Below, piece by piece: positions 176 to 11,917 of a stretch of DNA of 19,037 bases (positions are counted from its first letter, which is position 1; every line of letters starts with the position of its first letter). The notes beneath the pieces were generated by a model, which did not search any database, had not been told where the DNA came from, and saw nothing but the letters and a program-made list of their open reading frames with translations. A program made the translations under genes and the position numbers. The stretch comes from Hyphomonas sp. UBA5111 (GTDB taxonomy: Bacteria > Pseudomonadota > Alphaproteobacteria > Caulobacterales > Hyphomonadaceae): NCBI GenBank assembly GCA_002414505.1, contig DHZF01000092.1:38885-57921 (forward strand), given 5' to 3'.

Positions 176-3100
176 TCAGGCTATGCAAGCAACGGGGTCT
201 GCCGCGTCAAGTTCAACCCTTAGCGGAGAGCCCCACCAAGCTACGCCATCTTGCACCAATTCAATTTCAATTGATGAGGCGCCTCCCTTTATCCAGGTTT
301 GCAAGGCCGTGACAGGCAAAAGATGCGTATCACCAGGCGCAATAGCCATGACAATTCTGCTGCGTAAATTTTCGCTGAAGAGAACATTGCCGCCTGCGTC
401 ATAGAGCCTGTAGCCTAAGGCGACACCAAAGCGACCGTCGTCCAGGCCCTGTCCGAACCAGGTCTCGTCGGACTCATTGGTAACCGCGACAGTGAATTTT
501 TTTGAGCCATCTTCCAGTTCGGACATAGAACCTGGCAAAATTGACAAGACGTGTGCCTGGCCTGATGGCGCAATAGGCTGCGTATGGCGCAGGCAGCCGA
601 GATCAGAGGCAGGGCGGAAACGATGGTCCGATTCCGGTTCGTATGATTTGTACCAACCCTGGTCTACAATGACGCCGAGAAGCTCTTCAGCGCTTTCCGC
701 CCAGTTTGGCCAAATGGGCTGTGATACGCGAGCTTGCCTGGCAGCCTTTTTCCAGTCTCTCTGGCAAAACAGGCGCAACGTCTTCAGCAGCGAAGCAGAT
801 GAGCCAGTGTCGAAAAAGCGCGAATGTTGTGCGCCATTAGTGACTTCCTTGAATACAGGAATGTCGCTCGCGATAATCGGTATGCCAAATCTGCCCGCTT
901 CCACAATTGGCAAGCCAAATCCCTCTGCGTATGAGGCTGCGATCAGTGCATCGGAGGCATTGTAGAGCGTAACCAATTCTGCATCGTCGACCTTGCTGCG
1001 CCAATGAAGGCGATTGCCATACTCCGGGTGCGACTTGATCCGGTCGGCGATGGCTTCGGCACCCCAACCAAACTTCCCGACAATTGTAAGGTCTGCATCC
1101 ATCCCGGATGCCCAGCCGACCTCAAAGGCATCAAGAGCGATATTATGCCCCTTGCGCGGTTCCAATGTTCCGACCATCAGAAAAGAGGGGCGCGGGCGCG
1201 TGCCCCGGGGAGCTGACACATCTACTTCGTCAAGATGGGAGAAGTCCGCTCCCAGTCGCCAGTATCCGATTTTCATTCTATGAGGATACTGAATTGACTT
1301 GAGAAGGTTGTATAATTCGTCGGCGACTGCCTTCGAGATACACACGAAACCCGTCGAGACTTCCAGCGCGGAAACAAGCCAGTCGCGAAAGACTGGAGGC
1401 ATTCCAGCATCACAGAATGCAGGCGTCTTCAGCGGCACCATATCATAGAGGCAGGATATGACTTCAGCCCCTCGCAGACGGGCCTCAATCAGGTGCCGCT
1501 TGTGCAGCTTGGCGCTGTCCCAAGAACTATCCAGCATAAAAACCGTATCGGAGGGACGGAAGATTATCGGATCACTTGTCGTTTTGTCGGGTTTATTGGC
1601 AAGCGAACTGTCGGCGCGATACCATCCTTCGAAGTCGTCTGAGAAGGTGGGGACCAGAGATGTTTTACCATATACATTCTGCTCACTGAAATTCGAACAG
1701 ATTTGCCTGACAACTCTCTGTATCCCCGTCCGGTACTGTGTTTGAATGGTTGAGGTGGCGTCAACGAGAAGCCTCTTTGTCTCCTCGACGAATGGCTCGG
1801 CCAGAGCCAGCGCTTCGACAAGCCCCGTAGTATGTAGTTTGCTGCGTTTGATTTCTACGGCAATGCGTTCACGTAAGGCCTGAGTATCAGGACGTTCTGC
1901 TGGCTGTCTGGCAATCTCTCTGAAAGCTTGCACGGCGGTTGCTGCCACTTTTTCCCAGCTAAAGGTCTGGAAGAGCTTGTCACGCAGATGGGCTATCTTT
2001 GGCTTCAGATCCGCCCCCTGAAGGATATGCTCAATCCGTTCGGAAAGTTCCTTGGGTGAATTTGGGTCGAACAGCATTTCATCAATCTGCACGACTTCCG
2101 GCAATGCGCCCGTGTTTGATGCAATGACAGGGGTCCCGCAGATCAGCGCTTCCAAAGCAGTTAGTCCAAACCCCTCCATATAGGAGGGTTGGAGTATTGC
2201 ATCGGCTGACTTGTAAAGCCGGATCAGTTCGCGATCAGAGACAAGGCCGCGTTGTTTGAGGGATGACGCCGGTAATCCTAGGTCGGCCCACGCTGAACTA
2301 ATCTCGTCGATCAGGGGCTGAGGGTGATCGCCAGCTAGAATGAAGTCGGTTTCATCCCGCAATTGCTTGTTGAGCAATGCGAACGCTTTTGGAATTATTT
2401 CCACATTCTTGCGCCAATCCAGCGCCCCAATATAGACCACTGATTTTCGGCAGCCTTCTCGCCGTTCATATTCATCAGCAGAAAGAAGGTCGAGAAAATG
2501 CAGGGAGACGCCGGCTGAAATATTGGTGCCTTTTGACCCTTTAATCAGATCTCTTGCTTCATTTAGTGAAAAATCAGAGATGGATAGAAGTTTGTCGAAT
2601 TTCTCGTGCTGGCTTAGCCTTCGCTCATATGTGTCGAGTTCGAGCTTTCTGCGAAGATACCGATCCTTGTATCTGTAGGGAATTGCATCATAGAAGATGG
2701 CCGCTAGTGGCGGGACGAGTCCGGCATTGGGAAATAATGGTACGGCGGGGTCAAAAAAGCCCTCAAATGTGCTTGCACATAGCGCTACGTCGGGCGCAAG
2801 ACAGTTTACATGATGTGTAAGAGCCATTTGGCTTTGCGCACGCGCGTCAGAATAACCGGCTTCAGCTTCCCCTATCGAAGTCATGCCATGCCATACATGT
2901 ATATGATCGTTGGTCAGGAAGGCGAGCAGTTCTCGGCGTGCTGCGATTGCCTCATCTGCCATGACTGCATTTAGCGACACGTGCAGGTCTATGTCGGATG
3001 CTGACTGCGATAACGCCCGCAGGAATTCGAACACATACCGCCCGATACCACGATTGCGGCTTGAGGTCTGAAGGCATTGGCCATCAACCCAGATTTTCAT
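176..3100 (-). CDS. Two-domain GT4 glycosyltransferase with C-terminal beta-domain
   Basis: This is a cytoplasmic glycosyltransferase of about 974 residues, probably extending or priming the polysaccharide exported by the ABC transporter of the same operon. Two GT-B (GT4-like) modules are visible. The first spans about residues 1-395, with RNRGIGRY near 15-22 and the EX7E pair E309/E317 in EGFGLTALE. The second spans about 440-815, with RTGIQR near 457-462 and E726/E734 in EGFGLPIVE. Residues about 845-970 look like a beta-sandwich of the kind often fused to glycan enzymes (VTNESDETW, LGYRLYD, LVQDGVAWW). I start it at 3100 because that ATG overlaps the upstream stop as ATGA and has AAGGGG 8 nt ahead; an in-frame start at 3148 would lie inside the previous gene. 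Two GT modules in one chain recall WbdA of E. coli O9a, but linkage and sugar cannot be read from the sequence. It is the last gene of the operon. Confidence 0.88.
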   Translation of the reverse strand: MKIWVDGQCLQTSSRNRGIGRYVFEFLRALSQSASDIDLHVSLNAVMADEAIAARRELLAFLTNDHIHVWHGMTSIGEAEAGYSDARAQSQMALTHHVNCLAPDVALCASTFEGFFDPAVPLFPNAGLVPPLAAIFYDAIPYRYKDRYLRRKLELDTYERRLSQHEKFDKLLSISDFSLNEARDLIKGSKGTNISAGVSLHFLDLLSADEYERREGCRKSVVYIGALDWRKNVEIIPKAFALLNKQLRDETDFILAGDHPQPLIDEISSAWADLGLPASSLKQRGLVSDRELIRLYKSADAILQPSYMEGFGLTALEALICGTPVIASNTGALPEVVQIDEMLFDPNSPKELSERIEHILQGADLKPKIAHLRDKLFQTFSWEKVAATAVQAFREIARQPAERPDTQALRERIAVEIKRSKLHTTGLVEALALAEPFVEETKRLLVDATSTIQTQYRTGIQRVVRQICSNFSEQNVYGKTSLVPTFSDDFEGWYRADSSLANKPDKTTSDPIIFRPSDTVFMLDSSWDSAKLHKRHLIEARLRGAEVISCLYDMVPLKTPAFCDAGMPPVFRDWLVSALEVSTGFVCISKAVADELYNLLKSIQYPHRMKIGYWRLGADFSHLDEVDVSAPRGTRPRPSFLMVGTLEPRKGHNIALDAFEVGWASGMDADLTIVGKFGWGAEAIADRIKSHPEYGNRLHWRSKVDDAELVTLYNASDALIAASYAEGFGLPIVEAGRFGIPIIASDIPVFKEVTNGAQHSRFFDTGSSASLLKTLRLFCQRDWKKAARQARVSQPIWPNWAESAEELLGVIVDQGWYKSYEPESDHRFRPASDLGCLRHTQPIAPSGQAHVLSILPGSMSELEDGSKKFTVAVTNESDETWFGQGLDDGRFGVALGYRLYDAGGNVLFSENLRSRIVMAIAPGDTHLLPVTALQTWIKGGASSIEIELVQDGVAWWGSPLRVELDAADPVACIA

Positions 3101-4752
3101 AGAGAGTGCCCCTTGTGGCGTTTGCTGGTGCGAAGCAAGGCTTCCCATGCGGCTACTGATTTTTTGTCAGGCGTCAGGTTCCATTTTCTTTGCGCGATGG
3201 GGCTGTGGTCTTGAAGTGATGGACGTCTGACTTGCGAAAAATGATCTATTTTTCTGCGCAATTGTGGGGATAGATTGGCGACAGCAAGAACAGGTGGTTT
3301 GAGCCAGGGCATTTTGCGGGCGATACGGAGACCCACAAGAAGAAGAGGGCGTAGTATCGCCCTAGCTCCCTTCAGTCCGCTACGAGCCAGTCCGCCTGCC
3401 CACCTTATGGGAGCTGAGATTCGCCAAGATGCCGACTGCCTCACCTGGCGCGCCCAGTCATGGGCCTGATCCGCATCATTCCGGCTTACCAGCAAAGCCT
3501 GTTCGAGTTTCGTGTTCTCGGAATATGAGACTTCCAGCGCGGTCTGGATTGTCGCCGCCATTGATTGGACTGCGGTCAGAGTAGAATTGATTTGCGAAAG
3601 CTCGCGATCGCGTTCCGCAATCAGGTTCAGCATTCTGTCGCGGTCTGCTTCCAGATGCTGGACATGGTTCTGTGTTGCCAATATTGCGTGTTTCGCCGCG
3701 TCGAGTTCGGTTCCAATACGGGCGATGTGTCCGTCGCGCTGCTTCAGCGCGGTCTCAATACTTTCGATTTGCCCATTACGCTGTTTCAGTTCGGCTTCAA
3801 TACGGGCGATGTGTCCGTCGCGCTGCTTCAGCGCGGTCTCAATACTTTCGATCTGCCCATTACGCTGTTTCAGCTCGGCTTCAATACGGGTGATATGTCC
3901 GTCGCGTTGTTTCAGCGCGGCCTCAAGAGATTCGGCTGAGTGCGTGACTTCCTTGAGCCTGGCTGCATGATGGTCTCGCTGGTGCCTCAAATCGGCCAGG
4001 CTGGCCTCGAGGACCGTGAGGTCATTCTGCGCGAGATGCAGTTTTTCGGCGACGTGCCCGGAGAAAGGCGAATGCTCACTGAGCGAAAAGTAGTCGAAGA
4101 AGTTTGGCGGAAGGCTGAAAGCCGTTGCGCGATCCTGATGGTCTTCGTGCACATAGAAACGGTTCAAGCCATCGAAATAAGCAAAGCTGTAGCCGCGTCC
4201 CGTGAGTTCATGTTCCCACGACTCATAGGCGGGGGACTGTGAATTCGGTAGGGTACTTTCTACCACGACAATCCATGGCCGTATCTGGCTCTCCCCCCAC
4301 GTTTCGAGCACCGCGCCTTCCATGCCCTCGACATCAATCTTGAGCCAATGGACATGCCGTCGATTAAACCGCTCGAAAATTTTCGATAAAGGCAAGCATG
4401 GCACTTTTATCAGCTCTACAGCACGGCCATCTTTCTGGTGACGCTCTGCATGCTGGCGAATGCTTGTTGTTAGTCCAGTGCCGCCAAACGAATATAGCTC
4501 GATTTCGCCGTCCGATTCGCCTACCGCCGCTTCAAGTACTTCTTCATCCTCGCGAGCTTCGCGCAGTCTTTGGGCAAATTCCGGCATTGGCTCCACGTGC
4601 ATGCCGCGCCAGCCTTTCTCATAAAACAGGAGACTGACAGAATCGACGACCGGGTCATTCGCGCCGATGTCGATATATGCGCCGTTGCTGACGTCCTTTA
4701 AGGCCCGCCAGAGCATGACATCTTCGAATTGCTGAGCATAAGAGACCGTCAT
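3097..4752 (-). CDS. FkbM-family methyltransferase fused to a long coiled coil
   Basis: This 551-residue protein has an N-terminal SAM-dependent FkbM-type methyltransferase (about 1-215): YIDIGAND at 26-33 is the SAM-binding motif, VEPMPE lies at 53-58, and LKIDVEGMEG lies at 137-146. Enzymes of this family O-methylate sugars or natural products. Residues about 235-435 are predicted coiled coil by eye and contain five 14-residue units (280-349). The C-terminal part has a SWRISAPIRW stretch followed by basic, hydrophobic helices that could lie on the membrane. The layout (methyltransferase, rod, membrane-seeking tail, next to wzm/wzt) resembles the chain-terminating WbdD of E. coli O8/O9a, although no kinase domain is seen. 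A role in capping chains and setting their length is therefore an inference. The start overlaps the wzt stop as ATGA and the stop overlaps the next start the same way. No good ribosome site precedes it, so coupling is likely. Confidence 0.85.
   Translation of the reverse strand: MTVSYAQQFEDVMLWRALKDVSNGAYIDIGANDPVVDSVSLLFYEKGWRGMHVEPMPEFAQRLREAREDEEVLEAAVGESDGEIELYSFGGTGLTTSIRQHAERHQKDGRAVELIKVPCLPLSKIFERFNRRHVHWLKIDVEGMEGAVLETWGESQIRPWIVVVESTLPNSQSPAYESWEHELTGRGYSFAYFDGLNRFYVHEDHQDRATAFSLPPNFFDYFSLSEHSPFSGHVAEKLHLAQNDLTVLEASLADLRHQRDHHAARLKEVTHSAESLEAALKQRDGHITRIEAELKQRNGQIESIETALKQRDGHIARIEAELKQRNGQIESIETALKQRDGHIARIGTELDAAKHAILATQNHVQHLEADRDRMLNLIAERDRELSQINSTLTAVQSMAATIQTALEVSYSENTKLEQALLVSRNDADQAHDWARQVRQSASWRISAPIRWAGGLARSGLKGARAILRPLLLVGLRIARKMPWLKPPVLAVANLSPQLRRKIDHFSQVRRPSLQDHSPIAQRKWNLTPDKKSVAAWEALLRTSKRHKGHSL
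3706..3915 (-). repeat. 84-bp in-frame tandem repeat in the coiled-coil segment
   Basis: The segment holds 2.5 copies of an 84-bp unit, encoding 28 residues or exactly four heptads. The protein units alternate LKQRDGHIARIEAE and LKQRNGQIESIETA, at residues 280-293, 294-307, 308-321, 322-335 and 336-349. Aligning 3714-3797 with 3798-3881 by eye gives two mismatches in 84 bases. The third copy, near 3882-3915, is more diverged. The high DNA identity points to recent duplication, and any gain or loss of a unit would keep both reading frame and heptad register. Confidence 0.93.
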
Positions 4753-6110
4753 CCATTGGTCCCGCGGTCAACAGAGAAGGATGCATCCAGCATTGTGGTG
4801 CCGATAAAATAGTCCTTGTCCGTATTGATTACGTCGAAAACAAACAGATTGTCAGTCCACTCGTAGTTGTTTTCCAAATGGGTGTCGGAGCTTACAAGCG
4901 CTGGAGAGACGGAATATGATCCAGGACCGAGGGCGCATTCAAATTCAAGCGTGTAAGTCAGACGCTCTCCCGCCGAAATGTCGGTTATTGCCTGACGCGT
5001 GAACCAAGTGTTCGTTCCCCAAACGACATGGCCGGTTCTGTCTCGTATCATCAACCCAAGGACGAGCTGAGGTACATGGCCCAGTATGTCCACATCTGTT
5101 TTCAGCAAGACCTTCTCGCCCACGCGTGCGGTGGCAATCTCCTTGCCGCTGGGGGCCGAGAACATCCGTATGTCTTTGACAACTGCGCGGAAATCTCCCG
5201 AACGCGTAACAGACCAACCATTCTTGTTGCGCCGCTGTTCGAGAGTGAGAATCGCATTTTGTTTTTCTGTAATCAGGACGTTGTAATAGTCGATCACTTC
5301 GTCTGGTGGGCCGTCGCGCAAGACAACCCCCTTGTCGATAAGAAGGACCCGGTCGCACAATTCGCGAACATCGGGCAGGGCATGCGTTACCAGAATGATC
5401 GTGCAGCCATTGTCTCGGAACTCACGAATCCGGGCGAAGCTCTTGTGCTGAAAATAGGCGTCCCCAACAGACAGGACTTCATCGACGATCAGGATGTCCG
5501 GCTGGGTGGCCGTTGCCAGGGCAAATGCCAGCCGGGCCTGCATGCCGCTGGAATATGTTCTCAAAGGCTTGTCGAAGAATTCGCCGATCTCGGCAAAGGC
5601 TTCGATATCCGGCATCAGGGCTTCGAGCTCAGCTGGCGAGTGGCCCAGCATGCCGCCGGACAAGCGCACATTTTCGCGGCCGGTAAATTCCGAATTGAAC
5701 CCCAGGCCAAGTTCAAGGATCGCGCTGATTGAATGGGCATGATCGATACGGCCTTTGGTTGGCCGCATTGTACCCGTGATGAGTTTCAGGAGGGTGCTTT
5801 TGCCGGCGCCATTCTGCCCGATCAACGCAATGGCTTCTCCCTTGCGAACATCAAAGGAGACATCCTTTGTAATGTGAACAACCTCACGGGGCTTAACCGG
5901 AAGGCCCATCCAGTGCCAGAAGCGGTGCATTCCGGAATTGTAGAGCGTGAAGCTCTTCGTGACGTTCTGGACACTTAGCACGACCGGACGGACGGAATTT
6001 TCCAGCGTCTCAACCGACTGCGCTAGGGCTCTGCCATCTGCCCCCTCATCGCTTCCGTAAGCAGGGGGGCTGTTGGTCTCTTTTACGGTCAGTAATATAT
6101 CCTTGTCCAT
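4749..6110 (-). CDS. wzt: Polysaccharide ABC transporter ATPase with C-terminal glycan-binding region (Wzt-like)
   Basis: This is the ATPase subunit, 453 residues, that powers export of a lipid-linked polysaccharide across the inner membrane together with the Wzm-like permease. The nucleotide-binding domain covers about 43-280: Walker A GQNGAGKST at 98-106, signature YSSGM at 186-190, Walker B DILIVDE at 205-211 and H-loop His243. The phrase VLSVGDAYFQHKS after Walker B is typical of the Wzt/KpsT/TagH subgroup. Residues about 285-453 form an extra C-terminal domain like Wzt-C, which in E. coli O9a binds the modified non-reducing end of the glycan. KpsT-type capsule ATPases lack such a domain, which argues for an O-antigen-like system. 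About 40 residues before the ATPase core look disordered. The start overlaps the wzm stop as TAATG, and the stop overlaps the methyltransferase start as ATGA. Confidence 0.92.
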   Translation of the reverse strand: MDKDILLTVKETNSPPAYGSDEGADGRALAQSVETLENSVRPVVLSVQNVTKSFTLYNSGMHRFWHWMGLPVKPREVVHITKDVSFDVRKGEAIALIGQNGAGKSTLLKLITGTMRPTKGRIDHAHSISAILELGLGFNSEFTGRENVRLSGGMLGHSPAELEALMPDIEAFAEIGEFFDKPLRTYSSGMQARLAFALATATQPDILIVDEVLSVGDAYFQHKSFARIREFRDNGCTIILVTHALPDVRELCDRVLLIDKGVVLRDGPPDEVIDYYNVLITEKQNAILTLEQRRNKNGWSVTRSGDFRAVVKDIRMFSAPSGKEIATARVGEKVLLKTDVDILGHVPQLVLGLMIRDRTGHVVWGTNTWFTRQAITDISAGERLTYTLEFECALGPGSYSVSPALVSSDTHLENNYEWTDNLFVFDVINTDKDYFIGTTMLDASFSVDRGTNG

Positions 6111-6904
6111 TACAGAGCATCCACGATTTCAGGGCTGGCGCGCCAGAAAACGAAGCCTGATAAAAGCATCAGTGCGAGGCCGAGACAGGCCGGATACAGC
6201 AGTGAGATATAATCGGGCGTGACACGGTACACGATGACATCGTGGTAGAATTTCACGACGGGTGTCATGGGATTGAACACCAGCAGCCTGCCGACTGACG
6301 AGCCCGCTTGATCATCGGTGTACACGATAGGGGTAAGCCAGAACCAGAGATTGGTCACGACCGTCATGACCTGGGCAATGTCGCGCGTGAAAATGTTCAT
6401 GACCCCCAGCACGACGCCCACACCAAACGCCAGCATGATGCTGACAGTCATCGGCAAGATCAGGCTGATCCATGCGAAGCTGGGGAAAAAGCCGTAAAGG
6501 GCAATTATCACCGCGACCGTCAAGAAAAGCAGGCCGTTATTGATCAGGGCTCCGCCGAGCACCACTATCGGCAGGTAGACCTTGGGAAAGCTGATCTTTT
6601 TCAGCACGTTCGAATATTCAAGGAACATGTTGATGCAGCGTGTCAGGATTTCAGTGAACAGTGACCAGGCCGTGATGCCTGCCAGAAGGTAGACCGAATA
6701 GGCACCTGCTTGTTCGATCCCGCCAAGCTTTGCTCCGAGCACTTCTGACAAAACAAGAGCGTAAATCGTGGCCATCGCGAGAGGCTGGAGCACAAACCAG
6801 AGTGTGCCTATTTTCGAACGTGCGACACGGGATTTGAACTCGCCGCCGATTGCTGCCGGAATAAAATGACGATTTCGCCAGAGAGGCCGCAGGAACTCAA
6901 ACAT
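6110..6904 (-). CDS. wzm: Polysaccharide ABC transporter permease (Wzm-like)
   Basis: This is an integral membrane subunit of the ABC-2 type polysaccharide exporter, partner of the ATPase encoded immediately downstream. It has 264 residues, the usual size for Wzm/KpsM proteins. About six membrane segments are visible, near residues 33-54, 72-90, 112-138, 144-172, 181-197 and 234-254, along with the family phrases FTRDIAQ (172-178) and NPMTP (211-215). I chose the ATG at 6904 because GAAAGG stands 6 nt ahead of it. A start at 6973 would add 23 residues (MLVRTYSRL...) that look unlike this family. It is the first gene of the four-gene glycan operon, and its TAA stop shares a base with the wzt ATG. 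A possible promoter lies at 7020-7047. Confidence 0.9.
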   Translation of the reverse strand: MFEFLRPLWRNRHFIPAAIGGEFKSRVARSKIGTLWFVLQPLAMATIYALVLSEVLGAKLGGIEQAGAYSVYLLAGITAWSLFTEILTRCINMFLEYSNVLKKISFPKVYLPIVVLGGALINNGLLFLTVAVIIALYGFFPSFAWISLILPMTVSIMLAFGVGVVLGVMNIFTRDIAQVMTVVTNLWFWLTPIVYTDDQAGSSVGRLLVFNPMTPVVKFYHDVIVYRVTPDYISLLYPACLGLALMLLSGFVFWRASPEIVDAL

Positions 6905-7132: not shown

Positions 7133-8314
7133 CTAGTTGATGAGGCGCTTCAGTTCATCGACGAGATCGGTCTTTTCCCAGGTGAACGTACCGTTCGGGC
7201 CCGGCTGGCGGCCGAAATGGCCATAAGCGGCAGTGCCTGAATAAATCGGATTATTCAGCTTCAGGTGGGTGCGGATTCCTTTTGGGGACAGGTCGAACAG
7301 TTCGCGCAGGGTCTTGGCGATTCGCGCCTCGTCGGCGAGGCCCGTGCCGTGCGTGTCGACATAGATCGACAGGGGCTGCGACACGCCGATGGCGTACGAA
7401 ACCTGGATCGTGCATCGCTTGGCAAGGCCTGCGGCGACAACGTTCTTGGCAAGGTAGCGTGTGGCATAAGCCGCGGAGCGGTCGACCTTGGACGGGTCCT
7501 TGCCGGAGAAGGCGCCGCCGCCATGGGGCGCTGCGCCGCCATAGGTGTCGACGATGATCTTGCGGCCGGTGAGGCCGGCATCGCCGTCGGGGCCGCCGAT
7601 AACGAACTTGCCGGTCGGGTTGACGTAGAATTTGTCTTCCGGCGGGAACCAGCCCTCGGGCAGCACATCCTGCACGATCGGGCGCACGAGTTCGCGCAGC
7701 TCTTCAAGCGTTGCGCTCTCCTTGTGCTGGGTGGACACGACGATGGCGTTCACGCCGACGGGCTTTTCGTCGACATAGCGCAGCGTGACCTGGCTCTTGG
7801 CGTCAGGCTCGAATTCCGGACGTTCGCCGGAATGGCGCAGCTCTGCCATTTTCTGCAGTATCTGATGGGAATAGACGAGCGTGGCAGGCATCAGTTCAGG
7901 CGTCTCATCGGCGGCATAGCCGAACATGATGCCCTGGTCGCCTGCGCCTTCTTCGGCGTACAGGCCCTGGCCCTCTTCAACGCCTTGCGCGATTTCGGCA
8001 GACTGTCCGTGCACATAGCAGCTGACATCCATCTTTTCCCAATGGAAGCCGTCCTGCTCGTAGCCGATCTTTTTCACGACATCGCGCGCCGTCTGGATCA
8101 TCTCGTCATGTGTAATGGTTGACCCATTGTTCGTGCGCACTTCGCCAGCGAGGACGACGCGGTTGGTCGTGGTCAGCGTTTCGACAGCCACTTTCGACGA
8201 AGGGTCCTTTGTCAGGAACAGGTCGACAATGGCGTCGGAAATCTGGTCAGCAATCTTGTCCGGGTGACCTTCGGAAACGCTCTCGCTGGTGAATTCAAAG
8301 TCGTTCATTTTCAT
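7133..8314 (-). CDS. metK: S-adenosylmethionine synthetase
   Basis: This enzyme makes SAM from methionine and ATP in the cytosol and is the main source of methyl groups. The 393-residue protein is close to the usual family length. Diagnostic features are [10 protein letters not shown] at 11-20 (active-site His17), [12 protein letters not shown] at 123-134, and a [16 protein letters not shown] segment in the C-terminal half. Three in-frame ATGs stand in a row at 8320, 8314 and 8308 (Met-Lys-Met-Lys-Met). GAGGAA ends directly at 8321, so the ATG at 8314, about 7 nt from AGGA, has the best spacing and is my choice. Longer in-frame extensions to 8437 run into purU and are not credible. Only 31 nt separate it from the purU stop, so it is probably co-transcribed with ahcY and purU. 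Confidence 0.97.
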
Positions 8315-8345
8315 TTTCATTTCCTCGCAAGCGTCGCGTTGGGGA

Positions 8346-9197
8346 CTATCGGGCAAAGACAACCGTCTTGCCATCGTTGATGAATATTCTGTGTTCGGCG
8401 TGCGCCTTGACGGCGCGGAGCAGGGCGTTGCCTTCAAGGTGGCGACCTGTCTCGACCATGTCGGCAGGGCTGTAGGTATGATCGATCACTTCCGTGACTT
8501 GTGCGATGATCGGGCCCTCGTCCAGATCCCCGGTCACATAGTGCGCGGTCGCGCCGATGACCTTTACGCCGCGGGCATGGGCCTGGTGATAGGGCCTGGC
8601 GCCTTTGAAACCTGGCAGAAAGGAGTGGTGGATGTTGATGCACCGGCCTTCCAGGCGCCGGCAGGCTTCATCGCTGAGGACCTGCATGTAACGGGCGAGA
8701 ACCACGAGATCTGCACCGGTCTCATCCACGATCTCGATGAGGCGGGCTTCGGCGTCCGGCTTAGTGTCCTTCGTAACCGGCACATGAAACCAAGGCAGGT
8801 TCCAGTGGGCGAAATTGTCTTTAAGCGTTTTATTATTTGAAACGATGCCGACAACTTCGATAGGCAATTCCTTGCGCCGCGCGCCATACAGCAGGGTATT
8901 GGCGCAGTGATCCGATTTGGAGACCAGCAGCAATGCCTTGACCTTCTCATCACTTGGATGGATGGCCCAGTCTGCCTGCAACTCGCCGCCCAGACTGTTC
9001 AGTTCTGCTTCAAGGCCTTTCGGCGCCATTCCCTCTGGCCCGTGGAAAACGAGACGGGCAAAGAAGCGCCCCGTCTCTGGGTCCCCGAATGTCCTGGAAG
9101 ACGCGATGAAGCAATCATGGCGCTCCATCAGCCTGGCCAGGCTGGCCACAAGGCCAACCCGGTCAGGGCAAGAGAGGGTAAGGATATGTTCGCGCAC
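8346..9197 (-). CDS. purU: Formyltetrahydrofolate deformylase
   Basis: PurU hydrolyses 10-formyl-tetrahydrofolate to formate and tetrahydrofolate, balancing one-carbon pools. The protein has 283 residues. An N-terminal ACT domain (about 1-80, beginning [13 protein letters not shown]) is followed by a formyltransferase-like catalytic domain (about 85-283). In that domain N188, H190 (INIHHSFLP) and D226 (GDLDEGP) match the Asn-His-Asp triad of the family. The start codon is GTG (9195-9197), with AAGG about 11 nt upstream. The gene begins 20 nt after the ahcY stop and ends 31 nt before metK. Its place between two SAM-cycle genes fits a one-carbon operon: tetrahydrofolate freed here can carry methyl groups toward methionine synthesis. 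In E. coli the ACT domain responds to methionine and glycine; whether that holds here is not visible. Confidence 0.95.
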
Positions 9198-9217
9198 CGA
9201 AGGTCTGGCCTTGCTCT

Positions 9218-10612
9218 CTAGTAGCGGTAATGCTCTGGCTTGAACGGACCAGTCTGCTCCACACCGATATAGTCGGCTTGCTCACCGGACAGCTCAGTCA
9301 GCTGAGCGCCCAGCTTGTTGAGGTGCAGCATGGCCACTTTCTCATCCAGATGCTTGGGCAGGGTGTAGACCTTGTTTTCGTATTGATCAGCGCGCAGGTG
9401 AAGCTCAATCTGTGCCAGCGTCTGGTTGGTGAACGAGGCGGACATGACGAAGCTTGGGTGACCTGTGGCATTGCCAAGGTTCACCAGGCGGCCTTCAGAC
9501 AAGAGGATGATACGCTTGCCATCCGGGAAGGTGATCATGTCGACTTGCGGCTTGATGTTCGTCCACTCGAAATTACGAAGGCCTTCGACCTGAATTTCGT
9601 TGTCGAAGTGGCCGATATTGCAGACGATGGCCATGTCCTTCATCGCGCGCATATGGTCGACGGTGAGGATGTCTTTGTTACCGGTCGCGGTGACGAAGAT
9701 GTCGAATTTGGGCGCAGCTTCTTCCATCGTGAGGACGTCATAACCGTCCATGGCGGCCTGCAGGGCGCAGATCGGATCAACTTCGGAGACGGATACGCGG
9801 GCACCGGAGCCAGCCAGTGAGGCTGCAGAGCCTTTGCCGACATCGCCATAGCCGGCGACGAAGGCTTTCTTGCCGGCCATCATGACGTCTGTGCCTCGGC
9901 GGATCGCGTCGACGAGCGACTCTTTACAGCCATACTTGTTGTCGAATTTGGATTTCGTGACCGAGTCGTTGACGTTGATGGCGGGGAAGGGCAGCTCGCC
10001 CTTCTTTTCCAGCTGGTAGAGGCGGTTCACACCGGTTGTGGTCTCTTCAGAGACGCCGCGGATGCCGGCCTTGGTTTTCGCGAACCAGCCTGGCGAAGCT
10101 TTCATGCGCTTCTTGATCTGGGCGAAGAGGAATTTCTCTTCTTCCGAACCTGGCTTTTCCAGGAAAGCCGAATCGTTTTCAGCGCGCTCGCCCAGGATCA
10201 GGTACATTGTTGCGTCGCCACCATCATCGAGGATGAGGTTCGGGCCTTCACCATCTGGCCACTGGAACATGCGGTCTGTGTAGTCCCAATATTCTTCCAG
10301 CGTTTCGCCCTTATAAGCGAAGACCGGCGTGCCATTGGCAGCGATCGCGGCCGCAGCATGGTCTTGCGTTGAATAGATGTTGCACGAAACCCAGCGCACC
10401 TTTGCGCCAAGGGCTTCCAGGGTCTGAATCAGAACGGCTGTCTGGATGGTCATGTGGAGCGAACCACAGATGCGCGCGCCCTTGAGCGGCTGTTCCGGGC
10501 CAAACTCTTCGCGCGCGGCCATCAGGCCCGGCATTTCCGTTTCGGCAATCGCGATTTCCTTGTTGCCGTATTCAGCCAGCTTGATGTCGGCGACGTGATA
10601 GTCGTGTGCCAT
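9218..10612 (-). CDS. ahcY: Adenosylhomocysteinase (SAH hydrolase)
   Basis: This NAD-dependent cytosolic enzyme splits S-adenosylhomocysteine into adenosine and homocysteine and so removes the inhibitory product of methyltransferases. The 464-residue length is typical of the bacterial form with the internal insert. Visible features are SLHMTIQTA with His53, D130 in [19 protein letters not shown] with K220 and D224, the NAD-binding loop GYGDVGKG at 254-261, and the C-terminal KPEHYRY tail that reaches a neighbouring subunit's active site. The ATG at 10612 has AAAGGA 8 nt ahead. It is the first gene of the probable ahcY-purU-metK unit. The 144-nt leader region before it holds a hairpin (10664-10690), but I do not recognise a known SAM or SAH riboswitch there. 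Confidence 0.97.
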
Positions 10613-10663
10613 ATCAATGTTCCTTTATATGTTTATGCCGCGGTTAACATGACAGGCAGCCAA

Positions 10664-10690
10664 AGGCAACGCACGAAGTGCGCGTTGCCT
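10664..10690 (-). terminator. Stem-loop between the aminotransferase gene and ahcY
   Basis: On the minus strand AGGCAACGC..AC pairs with GTGCGTTGCCT, giving about 11 pairs with a two-base bulge and a TTC loop. It lies 66 nt after the aminotransferase stop and 51 nt before the ahcY ATG. Only three Ts follow it (CCTTTGG), so it is either a weak terminator of the upstream gene or a structured part of the ahcY leader. Confidence 0.4.
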
Positions 10691-10756
10691 GATAACAAAG
10701 CTTGGATACGCTTGAGATTGGAAGCGCTCGAGAAAGGCCCGTAAGGGCTCTAAAGC

Positions 10757-11917
10757 CTAGCCGTTGAAAGTCCGGACGGCGTCAATGATTTTCGCTTGGT
10801 CTGCTTCTTCCAGATACGGGTGCATCGGCAGGGCGATGACATGCTTGCTGGCCGCTTCTGTCACCGGCAGGGTGCCTGCGGGCGGCCTGTAGGCGGCGCA
10901 GAAATCCTGTTCGTGAATCGGCACGGGATAGTAGACAGCCGTCGGGACGCCCTGGCTTGTGAGGTGGGCCTGAAGACCGTCACGATCTTCATGTTCGATG
11001 ACATATTGCGCCCAGACGCTCTGGCCGCCTTCAATGACAGTCGGCACGCGCTTTACATGGCCTTTCAGGCCCTCGGCATAGCGGTCTGCCACAACTTGGC
11101 GCTTGTTGATCTCATCGGCAAAGATCTTCAGCTTCTCCAGCAGGACAGCGGCCTGGATCGTGTCGAGGCGGGAGTTCATGCCGACGCGCAGCGACAGGTA
11201 TTTCGGGTCATGATGGAAGTTGCGTTCTGCGGCGTCGGTGGGCGTCACCTTGCCATAGACGCGCAGCGACTCGATGCGCTCGGCCAGGGCCGCGTCATTG
11301 GTGATGATCGCGCCGCCATCGCCATAGCAGCCTAGCGGCTTGGCGGGGAAGAAGCTGGTCGTGGCAATATCGGCCCAGTCGGACGGATGCTTGCCGTTCA
11401 GGGTGCAGCCATAGCCCTGCGCCGTGTCAGCGATCAGCTTCAGGCCGAACTCGTCGCAGATCGCCTTGATCTCGGGATAGTTGGCGGGCTGGCCGAACAG
11501 GTCAACGGCGATGACGACCTTTGGCGTCAGCTTGCCTTCGGCCTTCACGGCCTCGACCTGCTTGCGCAGATGAGCCGGGTCCATGTTGTAGGTGTCGGGC
11601 AGGATGTCGACAAAGACCGGAGCCGCGCCGAGCCATGGCACAACTTGCGCCGTCGCCACAAAGGTGAAGGAGGGGCAGAACACGGCGTCGCCGGGCTTCA
11701 ACTCCCACGCCATCAGCGCAAGGGCGAGCGCATCGGTGCCATTCGCGCAGCTGACGGAGTGCGAGGCACCGCACCAGTCTGCCAGCTGCTTTTCAAGCTC
11801 TGTTACTTCAGGGCCGAGCACGTATCGACCGCTTTCCACGACGCTCAGGATCGCGGTGTTGATCTCGCTCTCAATACGTTTGCGCTGGGCCTGAAGGTCG
11901 ATAAAGGGAATGGACAA
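10757..11917 (-). CDS. DegT/DnrJ/EryC1 sugar aminotransferase, WbpE-like
   Basis: This is a PLP-dependent enzyme of 386 residues that would transfer an amino group to a keto sugar nucleotide, yielding an amino sugar for envelope glycans. Residues NGTDALALAL (59-68), DTAQGYG (164-170) and FFPAKPLGCYGDGG (189-202) are typical. K193 should form the Schiff base with PLP. From memory, the wording around GMNSRLDTIQAA, GVPTAVYYPVP and ALPMHPYL is close to Pseudomonas WbpE, which acts on a 3-keto-GlcNAcA nucleotide; the substrate here is not proven. The start is a TTG (11915-11917) with CAGG about 7 nt ahead. No ATG is available, and the protein begins right at the family's IDLQAQ motif. Partners of the WbpA/B/D kind are not in the window. 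Confidence 0.9.
   Translation of the reverse strand: MSIPFIDLQAQRKRIESEINTAILSVVESGRYVLGPEVTELEKQLADWCGASHSVSCANGTDALALALMAWELKPGDAVFCPSFTFVATAQVVPWLGAAPVFVDILPDTYNMDPAHLRKQVEAVKAEGKLTPKVVIAVDLFGQPANYPEIKAICDEFGLKLIADTAQGYGCTLNGKHPSDWADIATTSFFPAKPLGCYGDGGAIITNDAALAERIESLRVYGKVTPTDAAERNFHHDPKYLSLRVGMNSRLDTIQAAVLLEKLKIFADEINKRQVVADRYAEGLKGHVKRVPTVIEGGQSVWAQYVIEHEDRDGLQAHLTSQGVPTAVYYPVPIHEQDFCAAYRPPAGTLPVTEAASKHVIALPMHPYLEEADQAKIIDAVRTFNG

What the first reader, a model, noticed from the sequence alone, without database searches (positions are those of the whole stretch)
176..6904. ABC-exported polysaccharide operon with an FkbM-coiled-coil protein in the place of WbdD
Sequence: four genes fused by TAATG/ATGA overlaps encode Wzm-like permease, Wzt-like ATPase with an extra C-terminal domain, an FkbM methyltransferase with a ~200-residue coiled coil and a membrane-seeking tail, and a two-module GT4 enzyme. 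Established: in E. coli O8/O9a, chain length is set by WbdD (methyltransferase, coiled-coil rod, membrane-binding tail) working with WbdA, and Wzt-C reads the cap. Inference: the same logic is built here from a different methyltransferase family, without the WbdD kinase domain, so capping would be by simple O-methylation. This could be a convergent or variant terminator/ruler system.
Basis: partly seen in the sequence, partly recalled or inferred. Interest (0 to 1): 0.75.

Follow-up and report, generated by a model that had tools for sequence, protein, structure and literature searches.

The report
Swappable-cap terminator for exported sugar chains
A marine bacterium carries a machine that builds a surface sugar chain, measures it with a rod-shaped protein and probably stops it with a methyl cap; relatives carry a different capping enzyme on the same kind of rod, so caps look like exchangeable parts.

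Summary
A Hyphomonas contig carries wzm-wzt-FkbM/coiled-coil-GT4x2, fused by TAATG/ATGA overlaps and colinear with E. coli O9 wzm-wzt-wbdD-wbdA. The polymerase is a WbdA relative (28% over 808 aa). AlphaFold gives a 183-residue helix after the FkbM head.

'Convergent' is not supported: the C-terminal anchor/docking module is homologous to WbdD's (HHalign 99.3%; reversed controls under 0.4%), while the heads are unrelated in sequence. It is the WbdD chassis with another head. All four genes occur in order in 33 of 80 loci, in several phyla. Kinase-less capping (E. coli O8) and an FkbM length controller (Ochrobactrum) are in print.

New points: (1) an unannotated sulfotransferase-fold head sits on the same chassis; (2) in four of five Hyphomonas types the Wzt cap-reading domain follows the head (65-66% identity within, 38-42% across), not Wzt's ATPase domain; the fifth fits neither; (3) the docking peptide follows the polymerase type (8 of 8 versus 0 of 43); (4) the ruler is a tandem repeat that steps by 28 residues between close relatives.

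Cap chemistry and length control are inferred, not shown.

The parts
6110..6904 (-). wzm: permease of the polysaccharide ABC exporter
   Evidence: PF01061 2e-12; 36% identity to E. coli O9 Wzm over 257 columns
4749..6110 (-). wzt: ATPase of the exporter with C-terminal carbohydrate-reading domain
   Evidence: PF00005 and PF14524; 38% to E. coli O9 Wzt over 391 columns; best PDB sequence match 8dku, residues 75-446
4752..5219 (-). Wzt C-terminal domain (residues 298-453), the presumed cap reader
   Evidence: PF14524 at 302-438; in four of five Hyphomonas types identity follows the head type, not the ATPase domain
3097..4752 (-). FkbM/coiled-coil terminator protein, 551 aa
4078..4752 (-). FkbM methyltransferase head, residues 1-225 (presumed cap writer)
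   Evidence: PF05050 4e-28; the Foldseek PDB matches listed are mostly SAM methyltransferases, best E 2e-4
3520..4068 (-). coiled-coil ruler, helix 229-411
   Evidence: AlphaFold; heptad scan
3704..3926 (-). tandem DNA repeat that encodes part of the ruler (84 bp = 28 aa; half unit 42 bp = 14 aa)
   Evidence: TRF 2.7 copies, 93%; the two full adjacent units differ at 7 of 84 bases
3100..3435 (-). C-terminal anchor/docking module, residues 440-551, beginning SASWR
   Evidence: HHalign to WbdD tails 99.3% over 121 columns; without the first 15 residues 97.1%
3121..3165 (-). C-terminal helix LTPDKKSVAAWEALL, presumed polymerase docking peptide
   Evidence: AlphaFold helix 530-544; peptide type matches polymerase type 8 of 8 vs 0 of 43
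176..3100 (-). GT4x2 polymerase (974 aa)
   Evidence: two Glycos_transf_1 stretches; WbdA relative, 27.6% over 845 columns, E 8e-89; invariant E309/E317 and E726/E734 in an alignment of ten

Best explanation
The four genes make and export an O-polysaccharide-type glycan. The GT4x2 enzyme polymerises it on a lipid carrier at the membrane. The FkbM/coiled-coil protein oligomerises through its coil, sits on the membrane through its basic C-terminal helices, and holds the polymerase by its last helix. Its FkbM head stands about 30 nm away and O-methylates the non-reducing end when the chain is long enough to reach it, which stops growth. The Wzt C-terminal domain binds the methylated end and admits the chain to the Wzm/Wzt channel. 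Shown by sequence or model: gene order, domains, a long helix with heptads, homology of tail and polymerase to WbdD/WbdA, covariation of docking peptide with polymerase, and covariation of Wzt C-domain with head in four of five Hyphomonas types. Inferred: activity of each enzyme, cap chemistry, oligomerisation, length control. The sugar may be D-rhamnose (gmd and a reductase nearby), which is a guess.
For: Order as in E. coli HS wzm-wzt-(708-aa methyltransferase, taken as WbdD)-wbdA. Polymerase a WbdA relative. Coil predicted. Tail homologous to WbdD: 99.3%, 97.1% without the motif, reversed controls 0.2-0.4%; the WbdD C-terminal region recruits WbdA (PMC3482155 passages). All four genes in order in 33 of 80 loci, 20 with gaps of at most 60 bases at wzt-FkbM and FkbM-GT4. 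Docking peptide type follows polymerase type. Wzt C-domain identity is 66% FkbM-FkbM (G000-G016), 65% sulfotransferase-sulfotransferase (G010-G001), 38-42% across, although the ATPase domains of that FkbM pair are the least alike of the four (58%); trees of the two domains conflict in the same way. In 42 of 42 other FkbM loci the C-domain is nearer the Hyphomonas FkbM type than the sulfotransferase type (mean +9.8 points; ATPase domain +0.5) (see caveat). Coil insertions and truncations change chain length in WbdD (PMC5082667 passage).
Against: No polymer structure or mutant is known to me for this organism. Of the 80 loci only 34 passed both my coil threshold and the SxSWR motif; some FkbM heads have little or no coil, so FkbM next to wzt is not always a ruler. 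The writer-reader covariation could come from linkage, since the Wzt C-domain and the head are neighbours on the DNA. G002, a fifth Hyphomonas type, has an FkbM head but a C-domain only 35-40% like all others; a third sulfotransferase locus, G493, has one at 21-24%. In the C-domain tree the sulfotransferase pair plus L063 is sister to the Hyphomonas FkbM group (90/86) on a long branch (1.25), so the 42-of-42 result may only show that the sulfotransferase C-domains have diverged fast. Foldseek E-values for the head are weak.
Confidence: 0.76

Rival explanations
1. The FkbM head methylates residues along the repeat unit (decoration), not the chain end; the coil is a scaffold that keeps it near the polymerase.
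For: FkbM proteins methylate many substrates (recalled); 10 of 80 loci carry a further FkbM-like methyltransferase beside or fused to Wzt, and some FkbM heads have no coil.
Against: The head sits at the far end of a long rod on a WbdD-type tail, and another chemistry (sulfotransferase fold) occupies the same place; decoration needs neither a ruler nor a matching Wzt C-domain.
Confidence: 0.12
2. The protein is a terminator, but the coil does not set length; length is set by the ratio of polymerase to terminator.
For: Ruler length varies widely: 46-388 residues, median 142, in the 99 of 120 family members with the motif.
Against: In WbdD, coil insertions and truncations shift the modal length (PMC5082667 passage); between close relatives the coil changes by whole 14-residue units, keeping register.
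Confidence: 0.15
3. The covariation of the Wzt C-domain with the head and with the second methyltransferase reflects only linkage, or fast divergence of one C-domain lineage, with no recognition of the cap.
For: The 3' part of wzt abuts the head-coding 5' part of the next gene in many loci; the second methyltransferase lies next to or is fused to wzt in all 10 loci that have it; the sulfotransferase C-domains sit on a long branch; G002 and G493 fit neither type.
Against: Wzt C-domain specificity for its own polymer is known for O8/O9a (Cuthbertson 2005, seen only as a cited title). In L080 and L090 the terminator is not next to wzt and the C-domain is still nearer the FkbM type.
Confidence: 0.33

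Closest known systems
WbdD/WbdA with Wzm/Wzt, E. coli O9/O9a (Klebsiella O3)
   Same: Gene order; WbdA-like two-module polymerase; Wzt with C-domain; coil; homologous membrane/docking tail
   Different: Head is FkbM (PF05050), not the WbdD methyltransferase plus kinase; heads not alike by HHalign (1%); part of the ruler is a tandem DNA repeat
WbdD of E. coli O8 / Klebsiella O5
   Same: Methylation without a kinase (PMC3482155 and PMC11231755 passages)
   Different: Not FkbM as far as described; its sequence was not compared here
Klebsiella O7 ORF6, O4 ORF7, O12 WbbB
   Same: Terminator at the far end of a coiled coil in an ABC-exported pathway (PMC11231755)
   Different: Cap enzymes differ (methyltransferase-kinase of another kind, Kdo transferases); polymerase modules fused to the coil in O7 and O12. 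Described from the paper; sequences not compared
FkbM in Ochrobactrum O-antigen clusters
   Same: FkbM gene suggested to control O-polysaccharide length (passage of PMC10888714)
   Different: Coil, tail, polymerase docking and Wzt reader are not discussed in the passage seen; the 2020 paper it cites was not looked up

Membership tests
Coiled-coil chain terminators of ABC-exported glycans (WbdD class in the wide sense) | gene lies with wzm, wzt and polymerase genes | tested here: met
Coiled-coil chain terminators of ABC-exported glycans (WbdD class in the wide sense) | cap-forming catalytic head joined to an extended coiled coil | tested here: met
   FkbM head and 183-residue helix; activity and oligomerisation not tested
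Coiled-coil chain terminators of ABC-exported glycans (WbdD class in the wide sense) | C-terminal membrane/polymerase-recruiting region | tested here: met
   homology to WbdD tail; binding not tested
Coiled-coil chain terminators of ABC-exported glycans (WbdD class in the wide sense) | controls chain length and is needed for export | not testable with these tools
   needs a mutant
WbdD in the strict sense (O9a) | kinase domain | tested here: not met
   no kinase in Pfam/NCBIfam
WbdD in the strict sense (O9a) | WbdD-family methyltransferase domain | tested here: not met
   HHalign of heads 1.1%; Pfam PF05050 instead of PF13489/PF08241
FkbM methyltransferases (PF05050) | profile score above Pfam gathering cut-off | tested here: met
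   99.2 bits vs 22.7
WbdA-like two-module GT4 polymerases | two GT4 modules colinear with WbdA, both with the E-x7-E pair (motif recalled) | tested here: met
Wzt with cap-reading C-domain (PF14524) | Wzt_C domain | tested here: met
   100 bits vs 30.4; binding not tested
PAPS sulfotransferases (for the alternative head, P0121) | sulfotransferase fold | tested here: met
   first 27 Foldseek PDB matches are all sulfotransferases, but only two at E below 0.001 (best 4e-4); no Pfam match at 0.01; activity untested

The most novel reading that the evidence does not exclude
ABC-exported glycans use a modular cap code. One old chassis (ruler, anchor, polymerase dock) takes interchangeable heads (WbdD methyltransferase-kinase, plain methyltransferase, FkbM methyltransferase, and a previously undescribed sulfotransferase that would end chains with sulfate). 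The head moves together with the matching Wzt C-terminal reader as a writer-reader cassette, the dock evolves with the polymerase, and the ruler length changes by slippage of heptad-multiple DNA repeats.
Probability: 0.45. Interest if true: 0.82.

Novelty: new variant of a known kind. Interest (0 to 1): 0.66.

Why it matters
End caps govern length and export of these chains in the known systems, yet they are hard to see by NMR and can be overlooked (PMC11127046 passage). If the head and the Wzt C-domain can be read from sequence, the cap of many uncharacterised clusters becomes predictable, and four natural Hyphomonas combinations (two heads on two docks) give a ready test of which part does what. 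A sulfate-capped chain and a ruler whose length is set by repeat copy number would both be new to this field, as far as my ten paper searches in an open-access library reach.

Tried and rejected
Convergence with WbdD: rejected for the tail. Relation of the FkbM head to the WbdD methyltransferase: none found by HHalign. Homology of the extra C-terminal stretch of the polymerase to Wzt_C: 2.7%, not supported. metK/ahcY next to the operon as a sign of SAM supply: the flank is shared with H. beringensis, but I found no reason to call it functional. Sulfotransferase heads: 2 of 42 Hyphomonas genomes (5 matched, three of them not through the head); 0 of 385 in a class-wide draw (without a positive control in that draw this shows little); 2 of 299 in a phylum draw. 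FkbM heads with coil: 4 of the 37 Hyphomonas genomes (G000, G002 cut by its contig end, G013, G016). The Ensifer plasmid hit (L158) is a fused gene with no wzm/wzt match within 29 kb. G310 has the polymerase but no coiled-coil neighbour. In L063 (Mesorhizobium) the Wzt C-domain joins the sulfotransferase pair in the tree (99/89) and a Sulfotransfer_2 gene lies next to wzt, but raw identity does not favour that grouping (46/43 to the FkbM pair, 42/42 to the sulfotransferase pair) and its branch is long, so I hold it as a hint. The SxSWR motif selected the tails used in HHalign; the test was repeated without it. The docking-peptide pattern was written after seeing sequences; of two later cases one fits strictly (G010) and one nearly (G540). 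Heptad coils favour 21-bp periods by themselves, so the period statistic overstates its case.

Papers: PMC11231755 outline with abstract, passages, and part 1 of 2 of the Discussion; PMC3482155, PMC13168486, PMC5082667, PMC10888714, PMC4153317, PMC11127046 passages only. PMC4650267 (Hagelueken 2015) and a 2020 review asked for by a recalled DOI were not held. Statements that something was not found in print rest, in that library only, where most subscription journals are missing.
Full report
WHAT IS THERE. The window lies on contig C148 of a 3.26 Mb draft genome. Its nearest named relative among my matches is Hyphomonas beringensis, 79% identical over the whole FkbM protein, so I call it Hyphomonas. 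On the minus strand, wzm (6904-6110), wzt (6110-4749), the FkbM/coiled-coil gene (4752-3097) and a two-module GT4 gene (3100-176) overlap as TAATG, ATGA and ATGA. Pfam supports each name. No kinase domain was found.

COMPARISON WITH THE PROTOTYPE. The O9 locus of E. coli HS has the same order: wzm, wzt, a 708-aa methyltransferase, wbdA. The record does not name the third gene; I take it for WbdD by place and by the 708 residues given in PMC3482155. Blastp of the window proteins gives Wzm 36%, Wzt 38%, and the GT4 enzyme against WbdA 27.6% over 845 columns, E 8e-89; the FkbM protein has no match to WbdD above chance. Both GT modules keep their glutamate pairs (E309/E317, E726/E734) in an alignment of ten (their catalytic role in GT4 enzymes is recalled).

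THE ROD AND ITS TAIL. AlphaFold, with a 59-sequence alignment, places a continuous helix at 229-411 after the methyltransferase domain, then helices at 460-480, 482-492, 496-508 and 530-544 (pTM 0.48, so relative positions are not reliable). The tail begins with a motif, SxSWR, found 60-260 residues from the C-terminus in 97 of 120 FkbM relatives, 69 of 120 relatives of another headed family (below) and 87 of 121 WbdD-family proteins, against 9 of 2400, 9 of 2400 and 6 of 2420 shuffles. After dropping near-copies and tails of 180 residues or more (89, 60 and 72 left), profile-profile comparison gives FkbM-WbdD 99.3% over 121 columns, sulfotransferase-WbdD 99.7%, FkbM-sulfotransferase 99.7%; four reversed controls 0.2-0.4%. 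Without the first 15 residues: 97.1%, 99.0%, 98.3%. The heads show nothing (1.1%, 0.5%, 0.2%). The literature assigns polymerase recruitment to the C-terminal region of WbdD (PMC3482155 and PMC11231755, passages). I conclude that the tail is shared by descent and the head is what differs.

HOW COMMON. A scan of species genomes matched 301 relatives, of which the best 80 were kept. In these 80, within up to 10 kb and not always adjacent: wzm upstream in 45, wzt in 56, a Wzt C-domain in 41, a GT4-type enzyme of about 770 aa or more downstream in 51, all in order in 33; in 20 of these the wzt-FkbM and FkbM-GT4 gaps are at most 60 bases. 55 passed my coil threshold, 50 had the motif, 34 both. Some loci are cut by contig ends. 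Hosts of the 33 include Proteobacteria, a Nitrospirae, a Bacillota and a cyanobacterium. In the protein collection 2148 proteins match at 1e-8 among the 7994 candidates scored, the candidate list being capped.

A SECOND HEAD. In Hyphomonas genome G010 a polymerase 45% identical to the window's follows a coiled-coil protein that matches the window's coil and tail (30% over residues 259-543) but has another head, with an RSGSTYL motif. It has no Pfam match at 0.01. 128 proteins, itself included, match at 1e-6 among the 7998 candidates scored. In an alignment of 48, RNPWDQWWS is invariant. AlphaFold models the head well (pLDDT mostly above 90), and the first 27 Foldseek PDB matches are sulfotransferases, best E 4e-4, two below 0.001, TM-scores low because of the coil. 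In three of the four loci with upstream context (G010, G001, G493) the order is wzm-wzt-this gene (in G001 the contig ends in the gene); in the fourth, on an Ensifer plasmid, the gene is longer and has no wzm/wzt nearby. A third head, a UbiG-like methyltransferase without kinase, precedes a window-type polymerase in G540. I infer that heads are exchangeable and that the second one would make a sulfate cap.

DOCK AND POLYMERASE. Among the 51 loci with a downstream polymerase, the C-terminal peptide P-x(5-9)-W-x3-L occurs in 8 of 8 whose polymerase resembles the window's in both modules (380 bits or more) and in 0 of 43 others; 26 of those 43 fit another pattern of the kind LSPRARQIYxDLK and 17 fit neither. 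E. coli WbdD ends LLPPEVYEIYLKLTKNK. The pattern was written after inspection and the loci are not independent. Both dock types occur with both heads.

WRITER AND READER. Four Hyphomonas types form a natural cross: G000 FkbM/W-dock, G016 FkbM/other dock, G010 sulfotransferase/W-dock, G001 sulfotransferase/other dock. The Wzt C-domain is 66% identical between the FkbM loci and 65% between the sulfotransferase loci, but 38-42% across, while the ATPase part is 58% for the FkbM pair, 72% for G000-G010 and 81% for the sulfotransferase pair. The drop along Wzt between heads begins near residue 290-300. A fifth type, G002, has an FkbM head and a C-domain 35-40% like all the others; its Wzt carries a further methyltransferase-like domain. 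Trees agree with the cross: by ATPase domain G000/G013 join G010/G001 (100/99) to the exclusion of G016; by C-domain G000/G013/G016 group (99/96). In 42 of 42 other FkbM loci with a C-domain (L057 left out as a near-copy) it is nearer the Hyphomonas FkbM type, mean +9.8 points, against +0.5 for the ATPase domain, where 28 of 42 are positive. This is weaker than it looks: the 42 share ancestry, the contrast rests on two sulfotransferase loci, and in the C-domain tree that pair (with L063) is sister to the Hyphomonas FkbM group (90/86) on a long branch, so fast divergence would give the same result. The third sulfotransferase locus, G493, has a C-domain unlike either type (21-24%). A further trait behaves alike: 10 loci have an FkbM-like second methyltransferase beside wzt or fused to it; this needs 6 changes on the ATPase-domain tree (bootstrap 5-6) and 1 on the C-domain tree (bootstrap 1-2; clade support only 57/77). 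Other methyltransferases between wzt and the terminator (L071, L121, L128) were not counted. Recognition and simple linkage both fit; I favour recognition because Wzt C-domain specificity is established for O8/O9a.

THE RULER. Part of the coil DNA is an 84-bp repeat, 2.7 copies, 93% alike. The window, H. beringensis and P0003 have five, three and one 14-residue units, 28 residues per step, between similar flanks. Tandem repeats occur in 25 of the 80 FkbM genes, none starting before base 711 of the stretch given; the best-scoring period is a multiple of 21 bp in 17 of 25 (1 in 7 expected among multiples of three, p 1e-9, but heptad coils favour such periods). Rulers span 46-388 residues, median 142, in the 99 of 120 proteins with the motif; the window's is 214, about 32 nm at 0.1485 nm per residue (rise recalled), against about 20 nm for WbdD (PMC5082667 passage). 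I predict longer chains than O9a and a shorter mode in H. beringensis.

POLYMER. A GDP-mannose 4,6-dehydratase (above its NCBIfam cut-off) with a sugar reductase/epimerase (no equivalog above cut-off) beside it lies on the same contig; similar-looking pairs, not run through a family search, lie directly before wzm in G002, G010, G016 and L063. A D-rhamnose polymer is a guess from this.

STANDING. The kind is known: coiled-coil terminators are described as widespread (PMC11231755), kinase-less capping is known from O8, and an FkbM length controller was suggested for Ochrobactrum. What I did not find in print is the tail shared by FkbM proteins and WbdD, the sulfotransferase head, the repeat-built ruler, or the covariation of head and Wzt C-domain (searches named in Tried and rejected). 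Hence: new variant of a known kind.

Noticed in passing
window 7133-11917: metK, purU and ahcY (SAM cycle) lie directly upstream on the same strand, followed by a DegT aminotransferase; the same flank is present in H. beringensis (L047).
   Followed up: partly
L055 4451-6444: gmd and a sugar reductase/epimerase on the window's contig; similar-looking pairs lie next to wzm in G002, G010, G016 and L063, hinting at a GDP-6-deoxyhexose polymer.
   Followed up: partly
L055 7747-9237, 10388-10747, 11457-13763: UbiA-family enzyme with a weak HAD match, a small EamA protein and a 768-aa protein without a Pfam match above cut-off near the operon: recalls a three-component pentofuranose-adding system (compare PMC11127046).
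   Followed up: no
L050 910-3009; L058 7905-10001: Wzt proteins of about 700 aa with a second methyltransferase-like domain fused to the C-terminus (PF05050 above cut-off in L058, by similarity to the L077 protein in L050/L070); a separate version lies beside wzt in eight other loci.
   Followed up: yes
   Followed up: partly
L063 9222-10001: A Sulfotransfer_2 gene lies between wzt and a short FkbM gene in Mesorhizobium sp. ORS3324, whose Wzt C-domain groups with the sulfotransferase type in the tree.
   Followed up: partly
L062, L083, L098, L103, L104, L131: Single proteins of 1525-1930 aa that begin with the FkbM head; in five of the six, all but L131, GT4-like parts are joined on, like the one-protein formats of Klebsiella O12 and O7.
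   Followed up: no
window 179-580: C-terminal stretch of the polymerase (about residues 841-974) is conserved in relatives, has no Pfam match and is not like Wzt_C by HHalign; could hold the glycan.
   Followed up: partly
L154 4846-6030: A UbiG-like methyltransferase on a short coil with the same tail motif, before a window-type polymerase: a possible third head.
   Followed up: partly
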